Below the pieces are notes generated by a model. The model saw nothing but the letters and a program-made list of their open reading frames with translations, had not been told where the DNA came from and did no database searches. Both the position numbers and the translations under genes were made by a program. From Pseudomonas sp. Choline-02u-1 (GTDB lineage Bacteria > Pseudomonadota > Gammaproteobacteria > Pseudomonadales > Pseudomonadaceae), in contig NZ_PJBC01000005.1 in assembly GCF_002836515.1 (NCBI RefSeq), positions 1 through 64,000 on the forward strand: 64,000 nt of DNA, given 5' to 3'. This document shows positions 1-15,312 of this stretch, in pieces (within the stretch, counting starts at the first letter, position 1; each line of letters begins with the position of its first letter).

Positions 1-434
1 GCGCTGTTCTATTGTGGGGGTGGGTCAGAGGTGTAGGAGGGGGAGGGGGGGGGGGGGGTGGGGGGAGGGGGTGGTGTTGCCGAGGTTGGTGAGGCCCGAA
101 TTGTAGAGTGGGGGAAAAAGAGGCAATTCCTAGGTCGTAGCGTTCTCTTTAACCCAGAAACCAACAATCGTGTTTGTCCGCTATCGGCCAAAAACAGTCG
201 CTCCTAATAAAGATGACTCTGTGCTATCGCGGTATCCGAGTCTGACGCTATAGGCGAAATCGTCATTCAATATGCTTTAATCCCGCAGATCTTGAACGCG
301 TCGTACCGGATCTTGCACCAGCCACTGAAGTCGAAAAGGATTAGCGTTGGGGTCTTCACGGGGAAGTTGAGGGGAGTACAAAAAGCAAAAAACGAGGAGG
401 TATTTATTTTTAGACATAAATACCTGCCCATTAT
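1..434. other. Intergenic, G-homopolymer-rich; no gene seen
   Basis: No convincing gene. Positions 36-75 are almost pure G on the + strand, including a run of 14 G (45-58) flanked by shorter G runs. This could form a G-quadruplex or could be a sequencing or assembly artefact near a contig edge. Positions 181-201 carry, in reverse orientation, a copy of the short dispersed repeat also found near 5150 and 6465. The only open frame here (9-191, minus) is a proline run read off the G tract and is not supported. Confidence 0.5.
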
Positions 435-1298
435 TTAAAAATGATCCTCAATGTAAGCTATAGCTTGCCTTATACCGAGCAAATCTGTTTGAGGGCCTAT
501 CCTCACATAAAATAAATCATCATTCTTACTTTGCCCCGCAACTTTCCACTTTAGGAACACTGGTCGATTACTGGGAAGACAGCTCACAGAAAAAACAAAT
601 TTACCATCAACTTTTATTACATCCGACCTGACAAATTCAGAAAATTCCGCACCAATTGCCTCCCTGAAAATATTCCAAAAATGAAGTTGAAATTTATCAT
701 TATTGGGAAACAAGTCACTATCAATACCCAAGACTTCGCCGTCGTCGTTGACCCCGACCAACAACGTCCCTCCTGAAGAATTGAAAAAACCGGCTATGGT
801 TTTAAGTACCGAAAGCTCCATCTCACGATCTTTAATACCGGTTCGCAGATTTATCCTCAAGGTTGATTTAAATTCGACAACATCTGTTTCACCGCACTTA
901 ATTATAGACAGCAAGCTTGTTTGCTGTTGTGATTTATTATCTAAGGCGCGCTTCAGCTGTTGTGGAAGTTCAGTTAGGAGATTCTCTTTTGTAACATAAT
1001 CGACAGCCCCTAATCGGATCGCCTTGATTGTCTCAGCTTGACTGCCCTCCCCAGAGACAACTATTGAAGGGAGGTTGAGTTTTAATTCATTGATTTTTTG
1101 CAAAAGCCACAACCCCCCCCAACGGCCTGGGGGCATGGCCAGATCAATAAGTACGAGGTCATAAGTTTTTTTTTGGATTTTGAGCAGGGCATCTTCGCCG
1201 TCATTAGAAAATTCGAAAACTACGTCAGCCAGCCCTAAAACTCGCACTATGCTAGCAATCACTTCCTGTTGGTCGTCAGCCCAAAGAATATTTATCAT
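435..1298 (-). CDS. Response regulator: receiver domain fused to AlbA_2 (Schlafen-type) domain
   Basis: 287-aa output protein of the two-component pair. Residues 1-120 are a receiver domain: acidic pair D8/D9, phospho-acceptor D52 in a VLIDLAMP context, S82 at the Thr/Ser switch position and K104. Residues about 136-285 match the AlbA_2/Schlafen-type fold: an ETDVVEFK motif (E137, E142), then AGFFNSSGGTLLVGVNDDG with G at 190. AlbA_2 domains are known in DNA- or RNA-acting regulators and in Schlafen-like nucleases; which applies here is not visible. The ATG overlaps the stop of the upstream kinase gene by 4 bases, so the two are translationally coupled. By analogy with defensive two-component systems such as Detocs, where the receiver carries the effector, the AlbA_2 part may be the effector; this is inference. 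Confidence 0.85.
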   Translation of the reverse strand: MINILWADDQQEVIASIVRVLGLADVVFEFSNDGEDALLKIQKKTYDLVLIDLAMPPGRWGGLWLLQKINELKLNLPSIVVSGEGSQAETIKAIRLGAVDYVTKENLLTELPQQLKRALDNKSQQQTSLLSIIKCGETDVVEFKSTLRINLRTGIKDREMELSVLKTIAGFFNSSGGTLLVGVNDDGEVLGIDSDLFPNNDKFQLHFWNIFREAIGAEFSEFVRSDVIKVDGKFVFSVSCLPSNRPVFLKWKVAGQSKNDDLFYVRIGPQTDLLGIRQAIAYIEDHF

Positions 1299-4200
1299 AA
1301 ACTGTACTCGCTACTCTGCTCTTCATTATTGTGTACTGAAGGGATCCAGACTTTAACAGCGCCCCCTCCATTTTCACCATTCGAAAAAACTATGCTCCCG
1401 CCTAATTCCTTAGCCGTTAACATTACTGCCATGAGACCTATGCCATGGCCATTTTTCTTAGATGTTTTAAGCGGAACACCATTTTCCAGCGCGACTAGCT
1501 GTTCCGCCTTAAACCCAGGGCCCGAATCAGATATAACGAACTCCATGCCTTCCAACGTCTCTTCTATACTGTATGAAATATAGACGCTCCCGCTACCAGA
1601 CATCGCTTCTACAGAGTTCTTGACGAGATTACTTATTAACGCCCGCAAGCGAAGCTCGTCAGTAGAGACCTCAACCTTCGAATCGCAAGGTGAAAAAATC
1701 AAATTAATCGAACTCGGAATCCATGACCACAACTCGCTTATCAATGCCTTAATGAATACACTTATTTTTACGGGAGCAACGGTTGCTGAACCAGTTTCCT
1801 TGGAAAGATTCTTTACGATATTTAGTGCGACCCTAGCCTTATCCAAGTGGCCGCTAGCATCAGCAGCAAGCAAGTACCGTTCTCGCCCTATGCTTTTATT
1901 TCTAGCATACTCAGAAGTAAAGCAGTAGCCCAATATGCTATTTTTTACATCGTGCAATATAGAAGATATACGGTCATTTGCAGCCCTCTCATAAGGGTCT
2001 TTAAAATAGTATTCCCACCAAAGCTCCAAGGTGATTTTTCTAGTAACACTTGTTGCGAGCGAACCTATAGATATTACAATAACATCTTCAGATACAACTA
2101 TTTTAGTTACACCAAGTATAATCTTTAAATCAGTCAAGGTTGAAGACAAAAGCACAGACTCTTGCTCACTCTTTGTGAGACCTTTAATTTCTATGCATAG
2201 CTTGTCGTTATCAATATCAAACTCAACAATGATCGCATCATCCTTGGCGTCCACAGCTTTAAAAAAAATGTCAAGTAGACACAAGTGGGCCCCATCGACC
2301 TCAAAGACTTCAGCAAGGGGATCAGCCTTGCAGATTATATTTGCCTCACCTCGTCGAAGAAGTTTAAATTCCTCAACAATTTCGCCGATACTGGTAACGG
2401 CTACATCTCCACCTTTTAACCGAGTGATGGTTGCTTCAGAAATCAAACTTTTAAACGCACTCATTTTTCGTATATCGTGCGATTCTTGAAGGGGATCCGC
2501 TTCAGACAACTCCAATTCGAGATCAGTAATAGTTTTCGACAACCCAATATTTTTGTTTGACGCTAAATTCCTACCAGCATGACCGTAATATTTTATAAGG
2601 CCAGCCTTATTCAAGTGTGCTTCCAGATCAACAAACTCACTTATTAGCTCAATGAAGCGTTCAAAACTCGTAAAGTTCATTTTTTTAACAAAATTTACAG
2701 CCAGGAAATTTTTATTTATGAGTTTGGAAATCCTTAATGACTCACTTTTCCCTCCCGCATTCCTTGCCAAACTAATGGAGTGCTCAATAAGCCACTTTAC
2801 ATAATGATATTGATTGACCTCAAATGCGGGAGCGTCCTCACTAATAAAAATTGCGTCGAATATGCTTTTGTTGTTCCGAGCGAGTTCCGACTCTAGTACA
2901 ACATTTGGTTTTCCCTCGCTTATTTTAGAAAGCTGTGTGTCCCCTTGGATCCTTAGGACACTATCAAGGTAGTTCGATTCAATAGTGATACTCGGCGCTG
3001 CGCTCCGTTGTTGATTGCGAACTAACACTTCGGTGTTAAATCTAACCTTCAAACCTAAAATCTGGCATTTTTCTTGAAATACTGATTTTACCGGGACGAC
3101 CTCGTCGCGAGACAAATCCATGTTCTTAGGTTTAGTTACAAAGTGATCTAAAAATATAGGCACGTCGTTAATTAAAGCTTCTGCAGACTCTAACTCTCTT
3201 TCCTCAAGTAAGAAAATCACACCAAATAACGCTTGGACAAATTCACACTTAGTGGCTTGAGTTAAGTTTTTTTCGCCAGCCCCTAATAAAAGCACATCGA
3301 AAGTTAGAAGCCCCTCATAAATATTACTAATACTACGCTCATTGACTATAGCCCTAACTATCTCTCGAATTCCTCCAGCTTTTGAAAGATCATCCAAGCT
3401 GAAATTTCTAATAACCGAATCGAATGCTATCCATTCAATAACGCTAGCTCCCAAAAAGGACAAAACAGTATTGTTTTTACCTATAATTGAGTTCGCCTTT
3501 GCCAAATTGTAGCTGCGATGAGTTAAAGCCAGACTAACTAGCGGGGCAGACCAGATTGGCAGCTTCAACTTTTTTATAATCGAATCAAGTCTACGAGAGT
3601 TGATCGGCGACGGCATCAACTTCGTCGCTGAAATATAATCGACCTGTTTTTTTGCATTTACCGATTTCTTTTTTCGCTGCACTCGTATGGAGTGATTTTC
3701 AATAAAACGCTCTGCGGCTTGGAGTTCAGCCAATCGCTTAGACGGCCCCACACCTTCACATTGAAAGTTTAGAGCTTCCACCTTGACTTTGAATCTCCGT
3801 AAGTGCGCAGGTCCTTCCTCTTCAAGTAGAGTATAACTTGGCAACCTCTTGCCAACACTTTGACAATACTCCTGTAGTTTCGTCTTGCTATCTTTTTCCG
3901 GGGCTATGTCTATTGACTCTAGGGACAATAGCATATCAATAAACTCATGGTTTAATTTTGTATAGCCAAAATTGTACTGAATAGATCCGACTAGCTGATT
4001 GGTAAGGGAGTTATTAACTTCGACGGAGTTCTTTTCGTGCGAAGCCGCTCCGCGACCAAACATCCCTTTATTGGTCAACTTGATCTTGTTGCCTAGCTGC
4101 TCATAAACGCAAACTTTTATTTTTCTTTCTGCTAAAGAGCAAGCTCCCGAGGTTTTATCAGCAATATCAACAGCTCGGCAAGCTGAATATAAATTTATTA

Positions 4201-4420
4201 CAGATTTACCAACCGACTCCCACGCATCAATTATTCGATTGTCGAGATTGTATTCTTTTAATTTCGCCGAGGCGCTTTTCCTTGCCGATTTATGATGGAG
4301 AGCGGCCAACATAAAATTATGCTTTTCAATTTCTATAACCAGCTTTTTGATGTCATCCATGCCTATCCCCACCCTTGTAATAAATTCTATCGAAGGCCTT
4401 TTATGTAATTCTGAGAGCAC
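1295..4420 (-). CDS. Hybrid sensor: two inactive RNase III-like folds, dsRNA-binding domain(s), histidine kinase
   Basis: 1041 aa. RNase III-like fold 1 spans about 30-170 (ALHHKS at 40-45); its signature keeps E68 but has K72 where the catalytic Asp belongs. A good dsRNA-binding domain follows at 178-243, with KTKLQEYCQ at the start, EEGPAHLRRF in the middle and a KRLAELQAA end. RNase III-like fold 2 spans 278-425 (ALTHRSY at 298-304, LSFLGASV at 320-327), with S321 and A325 replacing Glu and Asp and Q396 replacing the second Glu. A weaker dsRBD-like stretch is at 443-515. Residues about 645-790 resemble a degenerate HATPase fold. The C-terminus is a kinase: H823 in ILHDVKN, N-box N935, G1 box DSGPG (965-969), G2 box GHGIG (991-995). 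No transmembrane segment, so cytoplasmic. The start is GTG at 4420; an ATG at 4360 behind a GGGG-rich stretch is an alternative. Expected role: sense structured RNA and phosphorylate the REC-AlbA_2 partner (inference). Confidence 0.85.
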   Translation of the reverse strand: MLSELHKRPSIEFITRVGIGMDDIKKLVIEIEKHNFMLAALHHKSARKSASAKLKEYNLDNRIIDAWESVGKSVINLYSACRAVDIADKTSGACSLAERKIKVCVYEQLGNKIKLTNKGMFGRGAASHEKNSVEVNNSLTNQLVGSIQYNFGYTKLNHEFIDMLLSLESIDIAPEKDSKTKLQEYCQSVGKRLPSYTLLEEEGPAHLRRFKVKVEALNFQCEGVGPSKRLAELQAAERFIENHSIRVQRKKKSVNAKKQVDYISATKLMPSPINSRRLDSIIKKLKLPIWSAPLVSLALTHRSYNLAKANSIIGKNNTVLSFLGASVIEWIAFDSVIRNFSLDDLSKAGGIREIVRAIVNERSISNIYEGLLTFDVLLLGAGEKNLTQATKCEFVQALFGVIFLLEERELESAEALINDVPIFLDHFVTKPKNMDLSRDEVVPVKSVFQEKCQILGLKVRFNTEVLVRNQQRSAAPSITIESNYLDSVLRIQGDTQLSKISEGKPNVVLESELARNNKSIFDAIFISEDAPAFEVNQYHYVKWLIEHSISLARNAGGKSESLRISKLINKNFLAVNFVKKMNFTSFERFIELISEFVDLEAHLNKAGLIKYYGHAGRNLASNKNIGLSKTITDLELELSEADPLQESHDIRKMSAFKSLISEATITRLKGGDVAVTSIGEIVEEFKLLRRGEANIICKADPLAEVFEVDGAHLCLLDIFFKAVDAKDDAIIVEFDIDNDKLCIEIKGLTKSEQESVLLSSTLTDLKIILGVTKIVVSEDVIVISIGSLATSVTRKITLELWWEYYFKDPYERAANDRISSILHDVKNSILGYCFTSEYARNKSIGRERYLLAADASGHLDKARVALNIVKNLSKETGSATVAPVKISVFIKALISELWSWIPSSINLIFSPCDSKVEVSTDELRLRALISNLVKNSVEAMSGSGSVYISYSIEETLEGMEFVISDSGPGFKAEQLVALENGVPLKTSKKNGHGIGLMAVMLTAKELGGSIVFSNGENGGGAVKVWIPSVHNNEEQSSEYSL

Positions 4421-5312
4421 CCTTAATCACAGTCTAAACATTGAGATGTGGCCAGCACCAGTTTTTTCCTCCTCATTAGGGCCCAACGATTTACCATTCC
4501 GACCCAATGCTGCGTAAAGACACGGTAGGGTGCAAAAAATCGCCACGTAAGGAAAGATGTTAGGGATGAACCGTGTCTCTATCCTCGCAGCTATGATCTA
4601 AGCACAATTGTCTCCTTTTGACCGTTCTCTTTCGGTCGTCACTGCTGAGTCTGACGATCAAGTCGAATGCAAACGGTCGGTCAGTACTGACGCCCCCTAA
4701 TTTCATCGGAACTTCTTATGTAATAGGGGTAATTGGGGGGTGGACGTGCCTGTGACTTCCGTAGTCGCAGAATCGTGTCTGATGTCTTGAGTATTCGCGT
4801 CCAGCGTTTCCATGGCCGTAATTGCGTTTGCAGCGACACTCCCTGCACTATTTTCAGAGAGCCGCCTGGCCACCTCTTCAATTGCCGCACATATGGCGTG
4901 CTGTACAGGAGCAGTGTGAGACCGTCCACTGTGGCTATGTTGACTCCAGAATTACATGGCTTGGGTATCGTCCTTGATTATCTGGTGCGGGAAGAATTAG
5001 CTGAACTCACCGCTGGCTGGAGCGACTTATCAACATCTGCTGTCACCTGGGTGACTTAACGGACTTGCCTTCATCCCTTCACTATTGCACCAATCATCTT
5101 TAGCCCTAGTTACCTCTCGAACGATGCCACAGATAGACGCTTTGAAATGACTGCTTTTGGCCGATAGTTGCCCTCCAAGAAAGGGCGACTGTTGGCCGAT
5201 TTACTGCCGTTCATGAACGACGATTTTCAACCAAAAGGAGCCCGTCGAAGGCGTCTAGGAAGTCAGAGGCGATTCGGTTTGTTGCTTCGAATGCCCCGCA
5301 GGCGACTGCTGT
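4421..5312. other. Intergenic, no intact gene; possible degraded coding remnant
   Basis: No open frame here has a start, ribosome site and composition I would trust. On the minus strand, about 4700-4945, one frame has protein-like composition (ending in ...PLLHKKFR before a TGA) but begins after a stop with no usable start, so it may be the C-terminal remnant of a decayed gene. At 5148-5172 and 5185-5210 there are two tandem, imperfect copies of a short repeat centred on TTGGCCGAT. Nothing else recognised. Confidence 0.4.
5148..5210 (+). repeat. Dispersed short intergenic repeat, two imperfect copies
   Basis: Copy one (5148-5172) has GACTGCTTTTGGCCGATAG; copy two (5185-5210) has GCGACTGTTGGCCGATTTA. 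A further copy is at 6464-6490 in the same orientation and a reverse-strand copy is at 181-201, so the copies lie around the FRG gene and outside the two-component module. I recall similar strings scattered in Pseudomonas intergenic regions. Function unknown. Confidence 0.6.
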
Positions 5313-6239
5313 TTAATGGAAGTCTGGATCGTAGCCGTCTTCGTTGTATTCCTGGATGAGTGACTGAGACGGCCTCACACCAACCTCAACGTTAGCCCAA
5401 TCTCTTACGCTTTTTGCCACACCATGGAAGCCGGGAAAGAGCGTTGAGCCATCAACGCCAAGTCGCGAACAAAGGTCTAGTAAAGTGGGGGCCTCCCCAA
5501 TCGGCAAGGTCATTTTGACAAGTGGCGTGTGGCTCCCTGTCATGCTGTAAATCTCTTCAACATCCTCTAGCGCTTCTACCTGATACAAGTCGTCTGGGTT
5601 ATATCCTTTAACCTCATGGGTAGTGAATGAACCCGACTGAGCCGCCTGATTTTTGCTCGTTCCCCCTGGAGTCCTAATCACCCTCACTGTTTTCCAGTGC
5701 ATAGCATAAGTGGTGTCCAGAGCCCAGATAGCCAGCCTCGGCATATCTCTGCTATCAATCTCAAGGTTTGCCGAAGAGGCAGCGAAGTAGCAGGCGACAA
5801 AGCTTCTCTCAGTCCAGTCTAGGAGGCGAGTGGGCACATCGTAGTGTTGAGCTACGGCCATGATTTCGTATAGTTGAGTCGACGGCCAAGGGATATGCGG
5901 ACTTTGGAACGAACCCCAACCATCGGCAAGTGTTCCGCTCAACTGTTCGGTGTAACCCGGAACATTTAGCCCTGAGCGATCACAGCCAATCAGAAATTTC
6001 CTCAATATCTCCAGCTCAAAGGCCACTTGCCCAGCCGTTGAGGCGTCAAACATCCTCCTTGGCGAGCCATAGGCGAATGAGCCTGTTCCACGCCTGCACA
6101 CTGATGGTGTCAGCTTGTACTCATCACTTGGCTGACCTCTAAAGATGAATCTTCCAGCATCCCAAATAGGGTTTAGAGGGGACAAGTGGTCCAGCAACTG
6201 GCGCGCAGTGTGGAAAGGTATCTCTGTTGGATATGCCAT
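5313..6239 (-). CDS. FRG domain-containing protein
   Basis: 308 aa. It shows the hallmarks of the FRG family: FIFRGQ near residue 31-36, the conserved AQHYDVPTRLLDWTE block near 130, a QSGSFT motif in the second half and a GVDGSTLFPG motif near the C-terminus. FRG domains (named for the F-R-G signature) occur in bacterial and phage proteins of unknown biochemistry and are frequent in mobile or accessory regions. There is no signal peptide or membrane segment, so a cytoplasmic protein is likely. The ATG at 6239 follows an AAGGAA ribosome site. It stands alone, on the same strand as the two-component module 0.9 kb away. A link to defence is contextual only. Confidence 0.8.
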   Translation of the reverse strand: MAYPTEIPFHTARQLLDHLSPLNPIWDAGRFIFRGQPSDEYKLTPSVCRRGTGSFAYGSPRRMFDASTAGQVAFELEILRKFLIGCDRSGLNVPGYTEQLSGTLADGWGSFQSPHIPWPSTQLYEIMAVAQHYDVPTRLLDWTERSFVACYFAASSANLEIDSRDMPRLAIWALDTTYAMHWKTVRVIRTPGGTSKNQAAQSGSFTTHEVKGYNPDDLYQVEALEDVEEIYSMTGSHTPLVKMTLPIGEAPTLLDLCSRLGVDGSTLFPGFHGVAKSVRDWANVEVGVRPSQSLIQEYNEDGYDPDFH

Positions 6240-6923
6240 CGTTCCTTGACTCCGCTCCGTTTGGCGATTTCCAGTGTATTGGCCTTTTGATAGGCAGGCT
6301 ATTACAGTTCACTCAGGTCTATGGCCGCCCTTGAACGGCCGTTAAGAGCAGTACAGCACGTATTCCTTTCCGTTCAGAGTCGATTGCGGGCCTTTGAAGC
6401 GCTACGGATTTCGAAGAAACCTCCAAACCTTAACGTAAACTTGTTGTTAGGCCATTGCTGAATGGTCTGCTTTTGGCCGAAAGCTGCCGTTTTCAAGGGT
6501 GAAAGTCAGCTTAACAGGCCGATACGGGACGCATCTGTCCCGCCCAACGTGGCGCGATTCCGCCTCATAAACACAAATGTTTAAAAAAACATCTCCAGTC
6601 ACGCTCCCAGGCTACATATCCTTGCGCCTTTGCCTACAGCTGCGCCAGAATCCGCCGGCTTGTGCGCTTTGGGGCCGGGTTCTATTGTGGTCGGGTCGCT
6701 GACGAATCAGCGATCGGGTTTGGTAGCCCGGCTTAGACTTGGCGCATTGCGTCACCCGATTCAGTCCTTTTAGGGGCTGTTGCTTTATGGTGGCCATGCG
6801 CAGGGCGTCTTCGGGCGCGCCGGTTTTCCAAGTCACCGGTCTACCAACCTTCGTATGGCCACCACCCCTTCGTTTGGTAGCGAAAAGATGATGGCTCCTT
6901 TTCTATGATTTGGAGATTCACTC
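6240..6923 (+). promoter_or_regulatory. Intergenic with dispersed repeat and putative structured leader of the DUF6124 gene
   Basis: No gene supported in these 684 bases. A copy of the dispersed TTGGCCGA repeat is at 6464-6490. From about 6600 to the downstream start the sequence looks like an RNA leader. It has a perfect 7-bp hairpin TCGCTGA-CGAA-TCAGCGA (6696-6713) and several short complementary stretches, including GGTAGC and CTACC motifs. I recall similar leaders upstream of other DUF6124 genes in Pseudomonas but cannot verify that here. A 74-codon open frame on the opposite strand (6612-6836) lies inside it and is probably a shadow. Confidence 0.4.
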
Positions 6924-7283
6924 ATGATCAAACCAACCCCCAACCCGCCCGAAACCGACCCCACGTCTCCCTACGAATCCCTAGATTCCAACAAACTCCA
7001 CGAAGCCGCTGATCGCGCGCTCGATCATTACCTGTCGCCCAACAATCTCCTGCCTCCGCCACGTAAGGCGCGGGGGATGTATGCGGTGACGGCGGATACC
7101 AAGAATGAAGAACTGCTGGCTGATGCGAGTGAAACGCTTGCTTCGGCGAAGACGATTGCTCAGGACATTTCCAGCCTGTTGCCCGCTCCGCAGCGGCGGG
7201 CGTTGTTGGGGGTTGCTCAACTGATCATGTTGGGGGAGCTGGCGGTGAATCGGGTGATGGATAATTTGGAGGTGGCGGGGTGA
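6924..7283 (+). CDS. DUF6124 family protein
   Basis: 119 aa, a small acidic and helical protein. The beginning (PTPNPPETDPTSPYES), then KLHEAADRALDHYL, and the C-terminal block with DISSLLPAPQRRALLG match the DUF6124 family as I know it from Pseudomonas, where several paralogues per genome are common. No function is established. There is no signal peptide; the C-terminal half is a predicted helix with alternating hydrophobics. The ATG follows a GGAG-like site (tttggagattcactc). It is monocistronic and preceded by the putative structured leader. Confidence 0.75.
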   Translation: MIKPTPNPPETDPTSPYESLDSNKLHEAADRALDHYLSPNNLLPPPRKARGMYAVTADTKNEELLADASETLASAKTIAQDISSLLPAPQRRALLGVAQLIMLGELAVNRVMDNLEVAG

Positions 7284-7414: not shown

Positions 7415-7470
7415 ATTGGCGACGGATCTATTTTCTGCCCCACCCAGTGCCGCCATAAAACATTGATGAT

Positions 7471-8914
7471 TTGAGCGCGGCGTCTGTAAGTCAGAAAGCC
7501 GGATTTTCCCTACAACGGACACCGATCCGTCCTGCATTCAAACCTGAGTCCGTTCGCCAAAGTCCTGCGTTTTCAGAACGGGACACGGATGTGACCAGAC
7601 TCATCCCGCTAAGCGAGTTCCATGGGCAGCGAGAGCAGATCCTCGATGCCTACGAAGCCATGGAGCAGTTCCGACAGGCATTGAGTCGTCCGGACGACTT
7701 GCCCGGATTCGACGACTTGTTAAACGCCATGGGCCTGCACCGTAGCAACTACATGCAAGGCGCAAATGAGCGAAAACTCATCGATGCTGTGCGTAACGGT
7801 GATTGGGCACTGGTGAAGCCGCGCATGGCTACAGACAACGGCGGCGCCTCCTGGAATGCCTTCAACCCCAAACCCGAGCCACCTCCTGCACAACACTTGG
7901 TGGAGGAACACGCCTACACCTTGCCGCAACCGGCTGAATCGGGTTTTCACATCGTTCAGAAACCCATGACGCTAGCGGCGCTTGAACGGGAGTTGTACGA
8001 AATCAGTCCCGGCGACTCACTGCGTCGCGAATTCCGTTCACTCAATCGACATCTCGGTGAGCGGGTCAAGCCTGGGCAAATGGTCTTGTTCAGCGACTCA
8101 CGTAACTACATGTGCCGACGCGAAGAAGCACAAATGATGGCGGCTGCGGAGAAGGTGAACGAGGCGTTGAAAGATCTTTCGGATGAAGAAGCTTCGTTCA
8201 TGGTTGAGCATCATGAGGTCATTGAGCCGTTTCTGGAGGTGTCGGCAGGCACATTGGGCGTTGCGTCATTCATGATCGGGCAGCATCTGGAAGGATTGAA
8301 AAACACCCTCAAAGCGTTGGAGCAACTGCATCAGCAGCAATACACCCAACATCGCCATCTGCATTCGCCGGAGTTCTTTGTCAAACGCAAACGCCTGATG
8401 GTGAAACTGGATGCCAGCCTTGGGCCGCTGGTACGCAAAGGTTCCGGTCTGCCAGATCATCCAAAACTCAAACGTGCACTGGGATTGTCCACCCGCCGAA
8501 TTGTTCACCGGTGGGGTAAAGCAGGTGCACCGGCACAACTGCCCGGATATGCGACCAACATTGCGGGCGTTGCCAGAGCAGCGAAGTTCATGAAGGGAGG
8601 TGGTTATCTCGGCATAGGTCTGCAACTGGGCGCATCCAGCTCAAAAATCTACGAGGTCTGCGCGTCCGACCGCGAGGCGGAATGCAGGCAAGTGAGGTTT
8701 GTCGAGGGAGGGAAAATGGTCGGCGGTACCGCTGGAGCTCTTGCTGGTGGATATCGGGGGGAAAGTAGGTTTGGCGGTATGTGCGAAATTGAAAGGAATG
8801 GGAAAACTTGTGTGTGTGCTTGTGGTCGGTGCGGCAGGTTCCGTGGAGACAGGAACAAAGATGACAGAGCTAGGAGAGTTAGTGGGACAAGAAATTCATG
8901 AGTATTCCGAGTAA
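7471..8914 (+). pseudogene. Effector-like protein gene with a frameshift at a G6 run
   Basis: As read, the frame opens with TTG at 7471 and runs to 8901, but its last 48 residues turn into Arg/Cys-rich nonsense. The coding signal moves into the next frame exactly at a run of six G (8756-8761) and then ends at a TAA (8912-8914) that overlaps the ATG of the next gene. Dropping one G gives a protein of about 480 aa. The middle has a LysM-like stretch (PGDSLRREF...VKPGQMVLF), a predicted coiled/helical region, and a glycine-rich C-terminus (GGGYLGIGLQLG, GGTAGALAGG, then VCVLVVGAAG) suggesting membrane insertion. I do not recognise the family; a secreted pore-forming toxin of the type VI kind is possible. 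The indel could be real, phase-variable or a sequencing error. Confidence 0.6.
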
Positions 8915-9294
8915 TGGAAATCACCAGCACAGTATTTGCCTGGGCATGTGGGGTGCAAATCTTGATGGGCGTGATCAACTGCGCAATGATTTTTTATGCC
9001 GTTTATACAAAACTCGATGCTCTGGAAAAACACTTTGCTGAGTGGCTGTACCTATCCATGGACTGTGGTTCATCAGGGGGAAGTTTTTACTCGAGAACTC
9101 AGCGGATGACCGCTGTCAGTCGGTTGATTACATCCAAGAGTATCCAACGGCAGGAACCCTTGCTGATCGACGCCGTTCAACGCCTTCCCAGAGGACTCAG
9201 GTTCTGGGCGACGAGTCCATTTCATGTCGGCTATTTCGTGTGCGGCGGGACGTCACTGCTTTGGCTGTATGGGAAATACAGAGGTTTTTTGTAG
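8914..9294 (+). CDS. Small membrane protein, candidate immunity partner
   Basis: 126 aa with a hydrophobic segment near residues 8-30, a soluble middle of about 70 residues and a second hydrophobic segment near 104-122 (FHVGYFVCGGTSLLWLYG). Its ATG shares one base with the stop of the preceding effector-like gene when that gene's frame is repaired, so the two are translationally coupled. A small membrane protein coupled to a glycine-zipper-rich toxin-like protein resembles an effector/immunity pair, where the immunity protein sits in the inner membrane. I do not recognise the family, so this role is inference from position and topology. Confidence 0.6.
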   Translation: MEITSTVFAWACGVQILMGVINCAMIFYAVYTKLDALEKHFAEWLYLSMDCGSSGGSFYSRTQRMTAVSRLITSKSIQRQEPLLIDAVQRLPRGLRFWATSPFHVGYFVCGGTSLLWLYGKYRGFL

Positions 9295-9331: not shown

Positions 9332-9718
9332 TCAGGGCGATTGGTTTTCCGGGCGGCTTAGCAACGTCTCAAGCCTGGCCAACGGTGGGGCGTCTTGGTT
9401 GCGGTCGAATACTTGGATTCCAATCCTGAGCAGCCGCCCATTCTCTGCGCTGGCGATCACCTGTTCACAGCGCAACATAAGCCGTCCTTGATCACATTCA
9501 ACAGCCTTCACCCCATTCGGCAATCGACCTTCCAGCCGTAGCTCAGCCATCCGGCTCTGCGCAGCAATCAGCGCAATCGATCTATCGCGCAACAGCCCAT
9601 TACTCTGCGTCATCAACCCCGCCACACGCACGGCGGCTGACATGGCGACGGCGATGATCGCCAGCGCCACCAGCACTTCAATCAGGGTGAATCCTTCCTC
9701 TCGCGTTCGCGCGCGCAT
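9332..9718 (-). CDS. gspI: Type II secretion minor pseudopilin GspI (Hxc-like)
   Basis: 128 aa. A type IV prepilin leader is clear: basic start, then EEG|FTLIEVLVALAII with the cleavage after G9 and the conserved Glu at mature position 5. The size and the LxE-containing C-terminal half (LRIGIQVFDRNQ) fit GspI rather than GspG or GspH. It is a tip pseudopilin that with GspJ and GspK primes pseudopilus assembly. It is transcribed alone, divergently from the gspG operon across about 150 bases. No gspH, gspJ or gspC lies beside it, which is unusual. Confidence 0.8.
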   Translation of the reverse strand: MRARTREEGFTLIEVLVALAIIAVAMSAAVRVAGLMTQSNGLLRDRSIALIAAQSRMAELRLEGRLPNGVKAVECDQGRLMLRCEQVIASAENGRLLRIGIQVFDRNQDAPPLARLETLLSRPENQSP

Positions 9719-9866: not shown

Positions 9867-10325
9867 ATGGATATCGCACCTTTGAACACGCTCAGTCAGT
9901 CGCCGCGCATGCCGCGTAGCCAGCAGGGTTTTACCTTGATCGAGATCATGGTGGTGGTGGTGATTCTGGGGATTCTGGCTGCGATGGTGGTGCCCAAGGT
10001 GCTCGACCGGCCGGATCAGGCACGGGCGACGGCGGCGAAGCAGGATATTGGTGGGTTGATGCAGGCGTTGAAGTTGTATCGCCTCGATCACGGCACGTAT
10101 CCGAGCATGAATCAGGGGCTGAAGGTGTTGGTCGAGCGACCGGCGGATGCGAAGAACAGCAACTGGCGTTCGTATCTGGAGCGTTTGCCTAATGACCCGT
10201 GGGGCCGGCCTTATCAGTACCTCAACCCGGGCGCGAATGGTGAGGTCGATATCTTTTCCCTCGGCGCCGATGGCCAGCCGGACGGCGATGGCGTGAATGC
10301 CGATATCGGTTCCTGGCAGTTGTAA
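9867..10325 (+). CDS. gspG: Type II secretion major pseudopilin GspG
   Basis: 152 aa. Prepilin leader with cleavage after G21 (QQG|FTLIEIMVVVVILGILAAMVVPKV) and the GspG signature GTYPSMNQGL, then a C-terminal calcium-site region DPWGRPYQYLNPG. It is the main subunit of the periplasmic pseudopilus that pushes substrate through the secretin. First gene of the operon G-K-L-M-D-E-F. I kept the ATG at 9867, which has an AGGGA upstream; an ATG at 9909 has none, but would give a leader of more usual length. In P. aeruginosa the corresponding gene of the Hxc system is hxcT. Confidence 0.92.
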   Translation: MDIAPLNTLSQSPRMPRSQQGFTLIEIMVVVVILGILAAMVVPKVLDRPDQARATAAKQDIGGLMQALKLYRLDHGTYPSMNQGLKVLVERPADAKNSNWRSYLERLPNDPWGRPYQYLNPGANGEVDIFSLGADGQPDGDGVNADIGSWQL

Positions 10326-10333
10326 GGCCGGCC

Positions 10334-11290
10334 GTGAACACAGGTTCGCTCAACGGGGCGAAGCAACGGGGTATGGCGATTATCAGCGCGTTGTTGATTG
10401 CCGCCGTGGTGGCGGTGATTGCGGCGGGGATGTTGACGCGTCAGAGCGTGGCGACCCGGGCGCTGGAGGCCGATCAGCAGCGGGTGCAGGGGCGTTGGGT
10501 CGCGCAGGGTGGTCTGGAGATCAGCCGGCAGTTGCTCTGGGATGCGCGCCTGCGTGATCCGTTGACCCGGCGTGATCAGCCCTGGGCGCAGCCGTTGCTG
10601 GCGGCGGGTTTTGCCGGGCGGCTGGAGGACGAGCAGGGCAAGTTCAACCTGCGCAATCTGGTCGCCAATGAGCGCATCGATGAGGCGCAGGTGCAGGCGT
10701 TCGAGCGCTTGTGCGAGCTGATTGGTGTGAGTGCCGTTGTCGGCCAGCGCATTCGTCAGCGGATGATTGCCGGTTATCCGCATTTGCTGAATGCGCAGAT
10801 TGGCGCGACGGGCAAAGCCGGTTTCGACAGTGGCCGCGCCACTTCGCCGGATGCCGATCACAAACCGCCACCGAAGGTGCCGATGCTTCGCACACTCGAT
10901 GACTTGCGCAGCGTCGAAGGCGTGACCGATGCGCTGATCGGCCAACTGGCGCCGTATGTGACGGTGGTTCCGGCGACGACGTGGATCAACGGCAACACCG
11001 CCACGGCGCAGGTGCTGGCGGCGTATGTGCCGGGGCTTTCGCTGGAGCGGGCGACGGCGTTGATCGCCGAGCGTGATGCCGGGCGCTGGTTTATCAATCG
11101 CGGCGATTTTGTCAACCGCTTGCGCATGCCGCAGCTGGAAATGAGCAGCGTCAAAGTCGGCATCACCAGCGACTGGTTTCGTTTGCGCGGTGAGGCGCGG
11201 CGTGATCAGCGTCGGGTCAGCCTCGACGCATTGCTGCACCGCAGCGAGGATCGGCTGCCGCAGGTGATCTGGTCGCGGGTGGGCGCATGA
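10334..11290 (+). CDS. gspK: Type II secretion minor pseudopilin GspK
   Basis: 318 aa. The leader is cleaved after G13, giving MAIISALLIAAVVAVIAAGML, and lacks the Glu at mature position 5, as is normal for GspK. The large globular domain contains the helix-hairpin-type inserted region (LDDLRSVEGVTDALIGQLAPYVTVVP) and a second INRGDFVNRL block typical of the family. GspK caps the I-J-K tip complex. The start is GTG at 10334, 8 bases after gspG. Its stop overlaps the gspL start (ATGA). Confidence 0.9.
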   Translation: MNTGSLNGAKQRGMAIISALLIAAVVAVIAAGMLTRQSVATRALEADQQRVQGRWVAQGGLEISRQLLWDARLRDPLTRRDQPWAQPLLAAGFAGRLEDEQGKFNLRNLVANERIDEAQVQAFERLCELIGVSAVVGQRIRQRMIAGYPHLLNAQIGATGKAGFDSGRATSPDADHKPPPKVPMLRTLDDLRSVEGVTDALIGQLAPYVTVVPATTWINGNTATAQVLAAYVPGLSLERATALIAERDAGRWFINRGDFVNRLRMPQLEMSSVKVGITSDWFRLRGEARRDQRRVSLDALLHRSEDRLPQVIWSRVGA

Positions 11291-12408
11291 GCCAGTTGCG
11301 CGTCGCGTTGCCGCCGTTGGCGGAGCTGGCATTGCACAGCGAAGTGAGCTGCGCCTGGCTGGATCGTCAGGGGCAGGTCAGCCGTGAGGATCGGCTCACT
11401 TTGAGTCAGTTAGGGCAACGGCCGAAGCAACCACCGCTGCTGTGTTTTCTGCATCCGGCCGACAGCCTGCTCGCCAGCATTGATCTGCCGCCGTTGCCCG
11501 CGAACAAAACGGCGGCCGCTGTGCAGTGCGCGGCGCAGGCATTGATGCTCGGCGACAGCAGCCAGATGCATATCGGCCACAGCCCTCGCGATGCGAGCGG
11601 GCAGGTGCAGATTGCCTGGGTTTCGCGGCAGCATTTGCAGCGCTTAGCCGCTGTGCTCAAGCAGGCGGGGTTGAGTTTGCGCGGTTTGTATCCGGCGCCT
11701 TATAGCCTGCCGGTGCTACCGGATGTTGTCGTGTGCATGGCGGACGGTCACGTACTCAGACGCGAGAGTTTGAACAGCGCGCAGGTTGAGCCGTTGCTCG
11801 GCGACGAAGTGGACGAGGCATCGTTCGCAGCTGACGCGACACAGCGCTGGGTCGGCCCCTTGCCAAGTTGGGGTTTGCACGGTGGCCTGCAGCAAACCGC
11901 CGGCGAGCAGCGTGGCTGGGGTCGTGCTGTCGGGTGTGTGGCTTTGGCCGTGGCCGTTTGGGTGGTCGGCCTGAACCTCTACGCCGCTCGCGAAGCGCGG
12001 CAGGGCCAGCGGCTCAAGGCGCAGATGAGTCAGCGGGTGAAACAGGCGTTTCCTGAATTGCCGGTGATTCTCAACCCGCTGCAACAGGCGCGTCAGCAAC
12101 TGGAGCAACGGCAAAAAGGCGCGGTCGATGACCCGTCGCAGCACTTCAATCGGCTGGTGTTGCAGGCCGGCACGGGCATGCCGTTCATGGCCGACAGTGT
12201 CGAGCGCCTGAGTTACCGCGACGGCGCTTTGCAGCTGGCGCTGGTGAGCGATGCAAACCGTGGCGGCAACGACAAGGATTGGCAAAGCACATTGGCCCAG
12301 GCCGGCATCAGCGTGACTGCCGATGACGCAGGCTGGACCTTGCGCCCGAGCGATGAAACCACCGCCAACACCAACGATGACGACGACAGCGGAGCAGACG
12401 ATGAGTAG
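11287..12408 (+). CDS. gspL: Type II secretion inner-membrane protein GspL
   Basis: 373 aa. The N-terminal cytoplasmic part (to about 215) is the actin-like GspL domain that binds the GspE ATPase; one transmembrane helix follows (about 216-236, VGCVALAVAVWVVGLNLYA), then a periplasmic ferredoxin-like domain. The acidic tail (NDDDDSGADDE) is unusual for the family. It starts inside the gspK stop and ends 8 bases inside gspM. Confidence 0.85.
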   Translation: MSQLRVALPPLAELALHSEVSCAWLDRQGQVSREDRLTLSQLGQRPKQPPLLCFLHPADSLLASIDLPPLPANKTAAAVQCAAQALMLGDSSQMHIGHSPRDASGQVQIAWVSRQHLQRLAAVLKQAGLSLRGLYPAPYSLPVLPDVVVCMADGHVLRRESLNSAQVEPLLGDEVDEASFAADATQRWVGPLPSWGLHGGLQQTAGEQRGWGRAVGCVALAVAVWVVGLNLYAAREARQGQRLKAQMSQRVKQAFPELPVILNPLQQARQQLEQRQKGAVDDPSQHFNRLVLQAGTGMPFMADSVERLSYRDGALQLALVSDANRGGNDKDWQSTLAQAGISVTADDAGWTLRPSDETTANTNDDDDSGADDE

Positions 12409-12949
12409 GGCGACGCTGGCGATTTACCGTGCGCGCTTGCAGCGTTTCAGCAGCCAGTTGCAGGCGCGGTGGCAGCCGTTGGCGCTGCGCGAAAAACGCA
12501 TGGTCGCCGCCATGGCGCTGGTGCTTGTCGGTCTGCTGATCTGGCTGACGCTGGTCAAGCCGCCGTTGGCCAGGATCACTTTTTGGCAGAGCGAAACGCC
12601 CAAGTTGCGCGCGCAAACCGAGGCGCTGCAAGTGCTGTTGCGTAGCGTCAACGTGCGACCGCAGGGGCAGAGCGTTGGCCAGTCGCTGGAGCAAAGTCTG
12701 CAAGCGGCGGGGCTGGCCGGGCATTACCAATTACAAGCGGCGGAGGGTGGCGCGTGGCAGCTGAATGTCGACGCCGCGCCGGCCGATGCGCTGCTCGACT
12801 GGCTGCTCAGCCAGCCATCACAACTTTCTCTGCAGGTGGTCGAGGCGCAGTTGCAGCGCGCAAACGAAACCTCGACCGATGTCACCGCCGGCACTTTGTC
12901 AGGCACCGTTCGCATGGATCAGGCGCAGGGCGCTAAGGAAGCTTCATGA
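12401..12949 (+). CDS. gspM: Type II secretion inner-membrane protein GspM
   Basis: 182 aa from the ATG at 12401, which overlaps the gspL stop; the same frame stays open upstream to 12323, but that would lie entirely within gspL. A short cytoplasmic segment is followed by one membrane helix (MVAAMALVLVGLLIWLTLV) and a periplasmic domain with a coiled stretch. GspM stabilises GspL and the assembly platform. Its last four bases overlap the gspD start. Confidence 0.85.
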   Translation: MSRATLAIYRARLQRFSSQLQARWQPLALREKRMVAAMALVLVGLLIWLTLVKPPLARITFWQSETPKLRAQTEALQVLLRSVNVRPQGQSVGQSLEQSLQAAGLAGHYQLQAAEGGAWQLNVDAAPADALLDWLLSQPSQLSLQVVEAQLQRANETSTDVTAGTLSGTVRMDQAQGAKEAS

Positions 12950-15312
12950 AGGAGTCACGCTGCAAACCGGCACGTCTGGCGCTGCCGTTGTTGCTGATGG
13001 CATTGAGCGCGTGCAACAGCACCACGGCGCCGCAAAACCAGCCGCCGCTGTTGGTCGACAGTGAACTCGGCCGGCCGCTGGCCAACACCCAGCGCAGCGG
13101 CGATGCGGTGGCCGATCGCGAACGGGCGCAGGCTCAGGCGCGGCCGGTGCCGAAGCAGTTGCACAACATCAGTCAGCGCGGTCGCAGTGCTGGCGCTGCG
13201 CCGGGCAATGCGACCCCGCGCAATCCGTTGGGCGAGCAACCGGTGACGCTGAATTTTGTCGAGGCGGATATTCAAGCGGTGGTGCGGGCGTTGTCGCGGG
13301 CCACCGGGCAGCAGTTTCTCGTCGATCCCCGGGTCAAGGGCAATCTGACCCTGGTCTCGGAAGGCCAGGTGCCGGCTCGTCAGGCCTACGACATGCTGCT
13401 CGCGGCGTTGCGCATGCAAGGCTTCAGCGTGGTCGATGTCGGCGGCGTGGCGCAGGTGGTTCCCGAGGCCGATGCAAAACTGCTCGGCGGGCCGATCTAC
13501 AGCGCCGACAAACCGGCCGGCAACGGCATGCTCACGCGCACGTTTCGCCTGCAATATGAGAACGCGGTGAACCTGATCCCGGTGCTGCGCCCGATTGTCT
13601 CGCCGAACAATCCGATCAATGCCTATCCCGGCAACAACACCGTGGTCATCACCGATTACGCCGAGAACCTTACCCGCGTCGCGCAGTTGATCGAGAGCAT
13701 CGACACGCCGAGCGCGATCGACACCGATGTGGTGCAGATCCAGAACGGCATCGCTGCCGATATCGCGCCGATGGTGGCCGACTTGCTCGACGCGCCGGGC
13801 AATGATCCGACGCAGAAAATCGCCGTGATTGGCGACCCGCGCTCGAACTCCATCATCATCCGCGCCGGCAGCCCCGAGCGTACCGAGTTGGCGCGCAATT
13901 TGATCTACAAACTCGACAACGCGCAGAGCAATCCGAGCAATCTGCATGTGGTTTACCTGCGCAACGCCCAGGCGGCGAAACTTGCGCAGGCGTTGCGTGG
14001 TTTGCTCACCGGTGAGAGTGACAGCGGCAGCAGCGACGCGGCGCGTTCGGTGCTCAGCGCGATGGGCAGCAGCACCGGCGGCAACGCCGGGCAGAACGGC
14101 CAGAGCAGCACACCGAGCACTGGCACTTCAACGACGACTGGCAGCGGCGCAACCGGCGGCAGTTATGCGCAGGGCAGTGGTGGCGGCACCGGCAGTGGCG
14201 GTACGCAGAGCAACGAACAGAACGTCGCTTTCAGCGCTGGCGGCGTGACGATTCAGGCCGACGCCACCACCAACACGCTGCTGATTTCTGCACCGGAACC
14301 GCTGTATCGCAACTTGCGTGAAGTCATCGATTTGCTTGACCAGCGTCGCGCGCAGGTGGTGATCGAGAGCCTGATCGTCGAGGTCGGCGAGGATGACGCC
14401 AGTGAATTCGGCGTGCAATGGCAGACCGGCGATCTGGGCGGCAAAGGTGTGATCGGTGGCGCCAATCTGGGGGGCGCGGGGCTCAACACGGGGGCGAAGA
14501 ACAGCATCGACGTACTGCCGCAGGGTTTGAACCTCGGCTACGTCAACGGCACGGTCGACATTCCCGGCATCGGCAAGATTCTCGACCTGAAGGTGTTGGC
14601 GCGGGCGTTGAAGAGCAAGGGCGGCACCAATGTGCTGTCGACGCCGAATCTGCTGACGCTGGACAACGAAGCGGCGAGCATTTTTGTCGGCCAGACCATC
14701 CCGTTTGTCAGCGGCAGCTACGTCACCGGCGGCGGGGGCACCAGCAACAACCCGTTCCAGACCGTGACCCGCGAAGAGGTCGGCCTCAAGCTCAACGTAC
14801 GCCCGCAGATTTCCGAGGGCGGCACGGTGAAGCTGGATATCTACCAGGAAGTCAGCAGCATCGATGAGCGTGCGTCCAACAGCGTGACCTCGGCGGGCAT
14901 TGTCACCAACAAACGGGCGATCGACACCAGCATTCTGCTCGACGATGGGCAGATCATGGTGCTCGGTGGTTTGCTGCAGGACGGCTACAGCCAGAGCAAT
15001 GATGCGGTGCCGTGGCTGTCGACGATTCCGGGCATCGGCGCGTTGTTTCGCAACGAACGCCGGGCGATCAGCAAGACCAACCTGATGGTGTTTCTGCGCC
15101 CGTACATCATCCGCGACAGCGAAGCAGGGCGCAGCATCACCCTCAACCGCTACGACTTCATGCGCCGCGCGCAGGGCGGCTTGCAACCGGAACGCAGTTG
15201 GGCGATGCCGGACATGCAGGCGCCGCAATTGCCGGCATCTGCGCAAGGCGTGCCGGCGGTTTTACCCACATCAGGCCCGCGCGCCACGATCAAAGCGGTG
15301 CCCATCCAATGA
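12946..15312 (+). CDS. gspD: Type II secretion secretin GspD, lipoprotein (HxcQ-like liposecretin)
   Basis: 788 aa. The signal ends in a lipobox (MALSAC, Cys 23), so this secretin is probably acylated and self-targeting, as known for HxcQ of P. aeruginosa, and needs no GspS pilotin; none is encoded here. The N0 domain begins at VTLNFVEADIQAVVRALS; N1-N3 follow, with a long Gly/Ser/Thr linker (about 365-425) inside the N3 region. The C-terminal secretin domain carries the conserved TPFVSG-type gate segment (QTIPFVSGSYVTGGG) and VPWLSTIPGIGALFR. It forms the outer-membrane channel. Confidence 0.92.
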   Translation: MKESRCKPARLALPLLLMALSACNSTTAPQNQPPLLVDSELGRPLANTQRSGDAVADRERAQAQARPVPKQLHNISQRGRSAGAAPGNATPRNPLGEQPVTLNFVEADIQAVVRALSRATGQQFLVDPRVKGNLTLVSEGQVPARQAYDMLLAALRMQGFSVVDVGGVAQVVPEADAKLLGGPIYSADKPAGNGMLTRTFRLQYENAVNLIPVLRPIVSPNNPINAYPGNNTVVITDYAENLTRVAQLIESIDTPSAIDTDVVQIQNGIAADIAPMVADLLDAPGNDPTQKIAVIGDPRSNSIIIRAGSPERTELARNLIYKLDNAQSNPSNLHVVYLRNAQAAKLAQALRGLLTGESDSGSSDAARSVLSAMGSSTGGNAGQNGQSSTPSTGTSTTTGSGATGGSYAQGSGGGTGSGGTQSNEQNVAFSAGGVTIQADATTNTLLISAPEPLYRNLREVIDLLDQRRAQVVIESLIVEVGEDDASEFGVQWQTGDLGGKGVIGGANLGGAGLNTGAKNSIDVLPQGLNLGYVNGTVDIPGIGKILDLKVLARALKSKGGTNVLSTPNLLTLDNEAASIFVGQTIPFVSGSYVTGGGGTSNNPFQTVTREEVGLKLNVRPQISEGGTVKLDIYQEVSSIDERASNSVTSAGIVTNKRAIDTSILLDDGQIMVLGGLLQDGYSQSNDAVPWLSTIPGIGALFRNERRAISKTNLMVFLRPYIIRDSEAGRSITLNRYDFMRRAQGGLQPERSWAMPDMQAPQLPASAQGVPAVLPTSGPRATIKAVPIQ

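What the first reader, a model, noticed from the sequence alone, without database searches (positions are those of the whole stretch)
435..4420. Candidate dsRNA-sensing two-component system: dead RNase III tandem plus dsRBD histidine kinase, with a REC-AlbA_2 partner
Seen: a cytoplasmic 1041-aa protein combining two RNase III-like folds, a convincing dsRNA-binding domain and a complete histidine kinase core, overlapping by ATGA with a receiver-AlbA_2 protein (D52 present). Known: defensive two-component systems such as Detocs pair a cytoplasmic kinase with a receiver-effector. Inference: structured or double-stranded RNA, perhaps from phage, is bound by the sensor and triggers phosphotransfer to an AlbA_2 output. 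I do not recall this architecture being described.
Basis: partly seen in the sequence, partly recalled or inferred. Interest (0 to 1): 0.93.

Follow-up and report, generated by a model that had tools for sequence, protein, structure and literature searches.

The report
Dead-RNase-III kinase with Schlafen partner
A Pseudomonas genome carries two overlapping genes, a kinase built on two copies of the dsRNA-cutting enzyme RNase III that have lost their cutting residues, and a partner that joins a signal receiver to a Schlafen-type domain; together they would likely sense double-stranded RNA, probably from phages, and are predicted to answer by cutting RNA to stop infection.

Summary
A two-gene operon (window 4360-435, minus strand) encodes a 1021-aa kinase and a 287-aa receiver-AlbA_2 protein. 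The likely kinase start is ATG 4360, not GTG 4420 (H823 becomes H803). The RNase III model matches the kinase twice: unit 1 is RNase III domain plus a convincing dsRNA-binding domain, unit 2 an RNase III domain followed by a degenerate dsRBD-like stretch. In both units catalytic acids are replaced, the same way in the relatives. Unit 2 carries naturally D45A and E117Q, changes that singly leave E. coli RNase III binding dsRNA with little or no cutting. Kinase core and receiver are intact. The AlbA_2 domain is related to mammalian Schlafens and keeps the three SLFN13 RNase residues (23 of 23). The pair lies in a variable slot of a type II secretion cluster where relatives carry SIR2, RES, PDC-M65 and GmrSD-AlbA_2 genes; an FRG gene is next to it. 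Best reading: a dsRNA-triggered phosphorelay arming a Schlafen-like RNase, probably anti-phage, working like PKR/RNase L. RNA binding, phosphotransfer, RNase activity and defence are untested; the kinase structure model failed. The paper searches made showed no description of this architecture.

The parts
1295..4360 (-). sensor histidine kinase gene, 1021 aa, likely ATG start at 4360
   Evidence: start placed by relatives
3695..4348 (-). RNase III unit 1: degenerate RNase III domain followed by dsRNA-binding domain
   Evidence: TIGR02191 model 3-218/219; catalytic residues lost
3695..3886 (-). dsRNA-binding domain 1 (Pfam dsrm), with GPAH and SKR motifs
3062..3574 (-). RNase III unit 2: second degenerate RNase III domain (positions equivalent to E117 = Q, D45 = A)
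   Evidence: TIGR02191 model 3-162; Pfam
2843..3106 (-). degenerate dsRBD-like segment after RNase III unit 2
   Evidence: alignment with rnc; first-helix match; secondary structure in a low-confidence model
2033..2842 (-). middle region of unknown fold
   Evidence: no Pfam hit, one PDB hit only, at E 1
1952..1954 (-). presumed phospho-acceptor His (H803; HDxKN motif)
   Evidence: invariant in 13 of 13 rows
1337..1663 (-). HATPase (CA) domain with N, G1 and G2 boxes
435..1298 (-). response regulator gene, 287 aa, REC-AlbA_2
957..1289 (-). receiver domain, phospho-acceptor D52 at 1143-1145
483..890 (-). Schlafen-type AlbA_2 domain; E137 (888-890), E142 (873-875), D185 (744-746)
387..436 (.). 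inverted repeat just after the response regulator, possibly a terminator
   Evidence: the repeat finder pair I2; no terminator scan was run
37..111 (.). remnant similar to the end of the gspC gene that borders the hotspot in relatives
   Evidence: 77% (37-111) and 80% (46-109) identity to L065 and L067; the bordering gene in L066 is Pfam T2SSC
5313..6239 (-). neighbouring FRG-domain gene (PADLOC candidate PDC-S15)

Best explanation
This operon encodes a kinase with two RNase III units that lack the cutting residues plus a dsRNA-binding domain, and a partner that joins a receiver to a Schlafen-type domain; it is predicted to act as an anti-phage alarm in which bound dsRNA would switch the kinase on and the phosphorylated partner would likely cut tRNA or other RNA. 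Shown by sequence: the two degenerate RNase III units, the dsRBD motifs, the intact kinase and receiver residues, the Schlafen triad, the overlap of the genes and their place in a variable slot that holds defence-type genes in relatives. Inferred: unit 1 (basic) captures dsRNA or structured RNA that builds up during infection; the two dead units on one chain would stand in for the usual RNase III homodimer and hold the RNA without destroying it; RNA holding several kinases together, or a shift between the halves, would start autophosphorylation of H803; phosphate would pass to D52; the receiver would dimerise and so bring two single AlbA_2 lobes together into an active RNase; RNA cutting would stop translation and with it the phage.
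For: RNase III model twice, E 9e-21 and 4e-10. Catalytic positions (E. coli names): unit 1 D45 to K, D114 to S, E117 to N in 12 of 12 rows that reach there; unit 2 D45 to A, D114 to E, E117 to Q in 13 of 13, E38 and E41 also lost. A review table lists E117K/A/Q (rnc70) as no cleavage but dsRNA binding, and D45A as no activity in vivo, low in vitro, binding yes (PMC8708148, passages). dsRBD E 1e-13; GPAH in 12 of 13 rows (one GFAH), SKR in 13 of 13. Unit 1 and its dsRBD are basic (pI 9.1 and 8.0), the other parts acidic. Kinase H, D, K, N and N-box in 13 of 13, G boxes in 12 of 13. Receiver residues and E137/E142/D185 in 23 of 23 chosen rows. AlbA_2 profile: 14 of the 16 PDB matches at E up to 10, and the 14 best, are Schlafens, E 4e-6 to 2e-3; the residues of 5yd0 aligned to E142 and D185 lie 5 and 43 after that aligned to E137, as E210 and D248 do after E205 in rSLFN13, whose mutation diminishes cleavage (PMC5862951 passages). 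Five of 12 kinase relatives have a longest contig of the same length as a listed regulator's, one with neighbouring locus tags; adjacency read directly in P. koreensis. The unit shared by window and P. koreensis is the pair with its leader (431-4431 against 9959-13959, 75% identity). Hotspot cargo. All domains look under purifying selection between the two copies, dN/dS 0.05-0.18, dS near saturation.
Against: No RNA binding, phosphotransfer, RNase or phage assay exists. The kinase model is unusable (mean pLDDT 49.9), so the pseudo-dimer geometry is a guess. Unit 2's dsRBD-like end lacks the RNA-contact motifs. The middle 270 residues match nothing, and one 19-residue stretch in it is hydrophobic enough (mean 2.0) that a membrane segment is not excluded. 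The Schlafen match covers about the first 70 of 157 profile positions, and the regulator has one lobe where Schlafens have two. Regulators of this kind are much commoner than this kinase (654 matches, 116 of the 120 listed with both domains), so many presumably have another sensor and the effector alone does not point to dsRNA. PADLOC has no model for the kinase and only weak receiver-level hits for the regulator. In P. koreensis the kinase frame ends before the G boxes, and P0136 lacks the RNase III part. The hotspot proteins that I scanned were picked by me (10 of 47 frames).
Confidence: 0.5

Rival explanations
1. The regulator is a DNA-binding transcription factor: AlbA_2 binds DNA and the pair regulates genes; it is not an RNase effector.
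For: Public records name such proteins 'DNA-binding response regulator' or 'putative DNA-binding domain-containing protein'; two-component outputs are usually transcriptional (established knowledge).
Against: All three Schlafen RNase residues are invariant in 23 of 23 rows; Schlafens are the best PDB matches; AlbA_2 domains related to this one are also fused to GmrSD-type restriction domains and to a Cache-like sensor, as expected for a portable effector.
Confidence: 0.15
2. The sensor reads the cell's own structured RNA (for example unprocessed rRNA precursor or failed RNase III processing) and the pair is a stress or quality-control system, not defence.
For: RNase III's normal ligands are host RNAs; the dead units could recognise the same ones (inference). 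SLFN13 acts on tRNA/rRNA (PMC5862951).
Against: Found in 1 of 298 genus genomes, the own one, not expected for a house-keeping check; lies in a variable slot with defence-type cargo in relatives.
Confidence: 0.13
3. Decoy: the dead RNase III units do not sense RNA but mimic host RNase III, and phage proteins that attack or recruit RNase III trip the kinase.
For: Dead copies of a host enzyme fused to a signalling protein are the usual look of a decoy, and phages are known to act on RNase III (both recalled).
Against: The dsRBD keeps its RNA-contact motifs in 12-13 of 13 rows and unit 1 is basic, which a protein decoy would not need.
Confidence: 0.12
4. The RNase III folds are only a dimerisation and scaffold part, and the signal enters through the unknown middle region.
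For: The middle 270 residues are conserved among relatives and match nothing.
Against: A scaffold would not need a conserved dsRBD with RNA-contact residues.
Confidence: 0.1

Closest known systems
RNase III (Rnc), and its cleavage-dead alleles such as rnc70 (E117K/A/Q)
   Same: Same RNase III domain plus dsRBD; unit 2 carries the E117Q and D45A changes that leave binding with no or low cutting in E. coli.
   Different: Two units on one chain, both without most catalytic acids, fused to a histidine kinase; the host keeps a separate intact rnc.
PKR (vertebrate dsRNA-activated kinase), and OAS-RNase L
   Same: dsRBD coupled to a kinase, and translation arrest as the likely outcome (works like; recalled).
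   Different: Histidine kinase with a separate receiver effector, RNase III-type sensor; no relation by descent claimed.
Schlafen RNases (SLFN11-14) and bacterial Schlafens reported as anti-phage
   Same: AlbA_2 domain with the E/E/D triad (PMC5862951 passages). [quoted passage not shown] preprint not held).
   Different: Single lobe fused to a receiver, so presumably switched by phosphorylation.
Detocs (defensive two-component systems)
   Same: Kinase passing a signal to a receiver-effector (recalled in part).
   Different: Detocs is a three-gene family whose best-described effector is an ATP-cleaving PNP (PMC11249213 passage); here two genes, Schlafen-type effector, RNase III sensor.
CBASS cyclase CdnE03 sensing phage cabRNA
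   Same: A bacterial immune sensor triggered by structured phage RNA (PMC10686824 passages).
   Different: Cyclic-nucleotide signal; no RNase III part or phosphorelay (recalled).

Membership tests
Ribonuclease III | RNase III domain followed by dsRBD | tested here: met
   Unit 1 matches TIGR02191 3-218/219; unit 2 matches 3-162, its dsRBD part only by alignment. Both scores lie under the curated cut-off.
Ribonuclease III | Catalytic acids E38, E41, D45, D114, E117 | tested here: not met
   Unit 1 keeps the E41 equivalent only (E38 not alignable); unit 2 keeps none unchanged (D114 to E). E65 was not examined. Not filed as a ribonuclease III enzyme.
dsRBD proteins | dsRBD domain with GPxH loop and KR/KK on the last helix (motifs recalled) | tested here: met
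   Pfam dsrm E 1e-13; PDB matches TARBP2, RNase III, Staufen; motifs.
Two-component system | Kinase H, N, G1, G2 boxes and receiver D/D/D/S(T)/K | tested here: met
Two-component system | Phosphotransfer between the two proteins | not testable with these tools
   needs purified proteins
Schlafen RNase | AlbA_2 domain with E/E/D triad | tested here: met
   triad from PMC5862951
Schlafen RNase | Two lobes forming a pseudo-dimer in one chain | tested here: not met
   one Pfam SLFN_AlbA_2 stretch, residues 137-272, in the regulator
Schlafen RNase | tRNA/rRNA cleavage | not testable with these tools
   needs assay
Detocs | three-gene system | tested here: not met
   two overlapping genes followed by an inverted repeat; the next upstream gene lies about 950 bases away and is an FRG gene
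Known or candidate systems in PADLOC-DB 2.0 | match to a model | tested here: not met
   kinase 0 families, regulator two weak receiver-level hits, E 0.0014 and 0.004

The most novel reading that the evidence does not exclude
A bacterial counterpart of PKR and RNase L: the first phosphorelay switched on by double-stranded RNA, in which a self-contained, cleavage-dead RNase III dimer serves as the dsRNA trap and a receiver-gated Schlafen RNase as the killer.
Probability: 0.4. Interest if true: 0.93.

Novelty: new variant of a known kind. Interest (0 to 1): 0.83.

Why it matters
Phages can make double-stranded RNA by overlapping transcription, yet to my knowledge bacteria have not been shown to use RNase III itself as an alarm (recalled; see the searches named in the report). 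If true, an ordinary RNA-processing enzyme was turned into an immune receptor by losing its active site, and dsRNA sensing plus Schlafen-type RNA cutting, both hallmarks of animal antiviral immunity, occur together in a bacterial two-component system. It gives a defined two-gene system, testable residue by residue, for asking whether bacteria sense phage dsRNA.

Tried and rejected
A tandem pseudo-kinase idea (middle region as a dead second kinase core) was tested by profile comparison and dropped: 13 of 40 column-shuffled controls scored at least as high, and 7 of 40 for the narrower test; the region also had only one PDB match, at E 1. The same test on the two whole RNase III units aligned 22 columns and 1 of 40 shuffles reached the score; dsRBD1 against dsRBD2 gave 0 of 40, over 16 columns of the first helix only.

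Azospirillum and Treponema matches to the first half of the kinase proved, where I read the frames (L009, L012, L013), to be ordinary-looking RNase III genes; L014 and L015 were not read. The viral and phage collections gave no relative of the kinase; for the regulator, the phage records gave receiver-part hits only and the viral contigs weak hits, nearly all over the receiver part. Plasmids: no near DNA match of 1-4700; for the regulator, 4 of 198 records with a match cover 80% or more of it, the best three at 24% identity.

The full kinase model was poor (pLDDT 49.9); its listed structural matches cover the kinase end only. Fold searches with the regulator model listed receivers above all, so the AlbA_2 part was compared by sequence profile; absence of Schlafens from the fold lists is not evidence.

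I tried to see which kinases accompany the commoner REC-AlbA_2 regulators. Class-wide searches (8 of 369 and 12 of 383 genomes with a match, own genome included, draws overlapping) returned, apart from the own genome, only matches that begin at model position 100 or later, so AlbA_2 without the receiver; the question stays open.

Residue numbers: alignment A3 and searches used a kinase that starts one codon after the likely ATG; an M was written over the first residue of a string used only for a printed length and start. Numbers in this report count from the Met at 4360 unless the GTG reading is named.
Full report
What is there. Two genes on the minus strand overlap as ATGA. The upstream gene encodes a kinase. 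The protein then has 1021 residues. The downstream gene encodes a 287-residue receiver-AlbA_2 protein. An inverted repeat right after it (387-436) suggests that the operon ends there. The host is taken to be a Pseudomonas: the named kinase relatives are Pseudomonas, and a same-genus genome (G893) holds the regulator on a contig of the same length as the P. koreensis one. The window begins at a contig end, which hides what lies further left.

The sensor. Pfam finds one dsRBD, one RNase III-like domain and a HATPase. The RNase III family model finds more: a full-length match to unit 1 (domain plus dsRBD) and a second match to unit 2, both under the model's curated cut-off, as expected for degenerate copies. 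A phmmer search with unit 2 alone brings up solved RNase III structures (best E 6e-4). Aligned with the host's own rnc and two other rnc genes, unit 1 keeps the E41 equivalent but has K for D45, S for D114 and N for E117; unit 2 has T/S/A, S/A, A, E and Q for E38, E41, D45, D114, E117. The D45, D114 and E117 replacements hold in 12 of 12 rows that reach unit 1 and 13 of 13 for unit 2 (rows are the window protein, its 99% copy P0003 and 11 relatives; P0136 was left out as it starts behind these parts). In E. coli, E117K/A/Q remove cleavage and D45A removes or lowers it while dsRNA binding stays (table in PMC8708148, passages read). Each domain looks under purifying selection between the window and P. 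koreensis copies (dN/dS 0.05-0.18; dS 0.85-2.3, so rough): the units are kept. dsRBD1 has the RNA-contact motifs (their meaning is recalled) and, with its RNase III domain, is basic. Unit 2's dsRBD-like end lacks them. Since RNase III works as a homodimer, two units on one chain look like a built-in dimer; this geometry is inferred, as the model failed (mean pLDDT 49.9).

The partner. The receiver has D8, D9, D52, S82, K104 in 23 of 23 aligned proteins that I chose from the 120 listed, and the model is good (mean pLDDT 86.5, pTM 0.59). The AlbA_2 part was compared with solved structures by a profile of 10 segments that I chose: 14 of the 16 matches at E up to 10, and the 14 best, are Schlafen proteins. 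E137, E142 and D185 fall on residues 218, 223 and 261 of chain 5yd0, which lie 5 and 43 after the first, the spacing of E205, E210 and D248 of rSLFN13, the triad needed for tRNA cleavage (that 5yd0 is the structure of that paper is recalled). All three are invariant in 23 of 23. The regulator has one lobe and Schlafens have two, so receiver-driven dimerisation would be a natural switch (inference).

Distribution. Kinase: 13 proteins at E 1e-3 or better in a database of about 5.8 billion, where only the 7995 candidates sharing most words were scored: the 99% copy, 11 relatives at 55-86% and one ordinary kinase. A search with the C-terminal part (7992 candidates scored) gave 23, adding one relative that starts inside the protein, P0136, and ten generic kinases. 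Genomes: 1 of 298 of the genus by kinase, the own one; 2 of 398 of the family by regulator, own and P. koreensis; 1 of 398 of the genus, the own one, at a stricter limit; the draws overlap. Regulator: 654 proteins at E 1e-3 or better, the best 120 listed, 116 of these with both domains, including non-Pseudomonas such as Nitrosospira, Aromatoleum and Serratia. So the effector half is common and the dsRNA half rare. Five of 12 kinase relatives (P0004-P0014 and P0136) have a longest contig of the same length as a listed regulator's; the tables give only the longest contig, so the rest are undecided. Related AlbA_2 domains also occur behind a GmrSD_N domain (L018, L067) or a weak Cache-like match (L016, under the cut-off), as expected of an exchangeable effector.

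Place in the genome. The pair lies between a remnant like the end of gspC (window 37-111) and gspI (9332-9718), in a type II secretion cluster; Pfam confirms T2SS proteins I, G, K and the GspD secretin in the window and protein C at the border in L066. The P. koreensis pair sits in the same interval in the other orientation; the two loci share the 4.0-kb unit from just before the kinase to the end of the regulator, the cluster, and part of the DUF6124 region. Of 57 related genomes, 11 have the neighbouring gspK at E 1e-60 or better, own included; I fetched 6 of the 12 non-own places. In none of the 6 did the pair region give a match, though L068 begins at a contig end inside or near the slot. 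One is nearly empty (110 bases between the border matches, L070); four hold about 7-12 kb that, apart from the DUF6124 region and, in L069, the region like window 7449-9293, do not match the window. Of 47 open frames listed in these slots, borders included, I picked 10 by size and look: 5 of 10 match PADLOC models (SIR2/ThsA-like twice, PDC-M65A, PDC-M65B, and the GmrSD_N-SLFN_AlbA_2 protein, which matches NsnA), 2 more have RES domains (one under the cut-off) and one an AAA domain; DUF6119 and one more have no such hint. An eleventh, a 460-aa HEAT-repeat protein, was scanned by Pfam only; the rest, L068 included, were not scanned, so this is a selected count. In the window the next gene is an FRG protein that matches candidate system PDC-S15. 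The slot looks like one for exchangeable defence-type cargo.

Mechanism and rivals. The best reading is a dsRNA-triggered phosphorelay that arms a Schlafen-type RNase (confidence 0.5 for the whole chain; I would put RNA binding by the sensor near 0.8, an RNase effector near 0.65, defence near 0.75). The rivals are a transcriptional output, a host-RNA stress sensor, a decoy for phage proteins acting on RNase III, and a mere scaffold; each has a refuting test in its entry.

Known or new. Ten paper searches in a library of open PMC papers, without most subscription journals and with few preprints, listed no paper whose title or shown abstract start describes an RNase III- or dsRBD-bearing histidine kinase or a receiver-Schlafen regulator; several searches had more hits than were listed. 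The parts have known company: Detocs as two-component defence (passage in PMC11249213), phage-RNA sensing by CBASS (passages in PMC10686824), Schlafen-family RNases, some fused to a minimal histidine kinase, near BREX loci (passages in PMC12839542), and a preprint on bacterial Schlafens that I could not read and that may cover the effector. A 2026 machine-learning survey has a figure legend that expands HATPase and REC (PMC13092281); whether it includes this pair I could not tell. I therefore file it as a new variant of a known kind, with a fair chance that the sensor principle is new.

Noticed in passing
window 5313-6239 (-): FRG-domain gene matching PADLOC candidate defence models PDC-S15 (best E 5e-28) and phrog_4962 (E 6e-48), next to the pair.
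   Followed up: partly
L067:6838-8613 (-): GmrSD_N fused to SLFN_AlbA_2 in the same hotspot of another genome: a second Schlafen-type effector in the same slot.
   Followed up: partly
L066:6589-13846: SIR2-like gene, two RES-domain genes and the candidate pair PDC-M65A/B packed in the hotspot of a close relative.
   Followed up: partly
L011:8449-9864: 471-aa gene upstream of the P. koreensis pair, matching only a phage-derived family of unknown function (phrog_27609, E 5e-70), no Pfam, NCBIfam or PADLOC hit; no match in the phage records by tblastn.
   Followed up: partly
L011:10031-12826: The P. koreensis kinase frame ends before the G boxes while its regulator is intact.
   Followed up: no
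window 6924-7283 (+): DUF6124 gene region that recurs in this hotspot in several relatives.
   Followed up: no
window 4605-4626, 5144-5165, 5179-5200, 6460-6481, and 181-199: Copies of a roughly 20-base repeat (TTTTGGCCGAT-like) scattered in the gaps of the island, in inverse orientation at its left end.
   Followed up: no
window 7471-8901 (+): 476-aa gene with no Pfam, NCBIfam, PADLOC or PHROG hit; its region is about 90% identical in DNA to the hotspot of L069.
   Followed up: no
window 1-75: Long G-rich run at the contig end, where the assembly may be unreliable.
   Followed up: no
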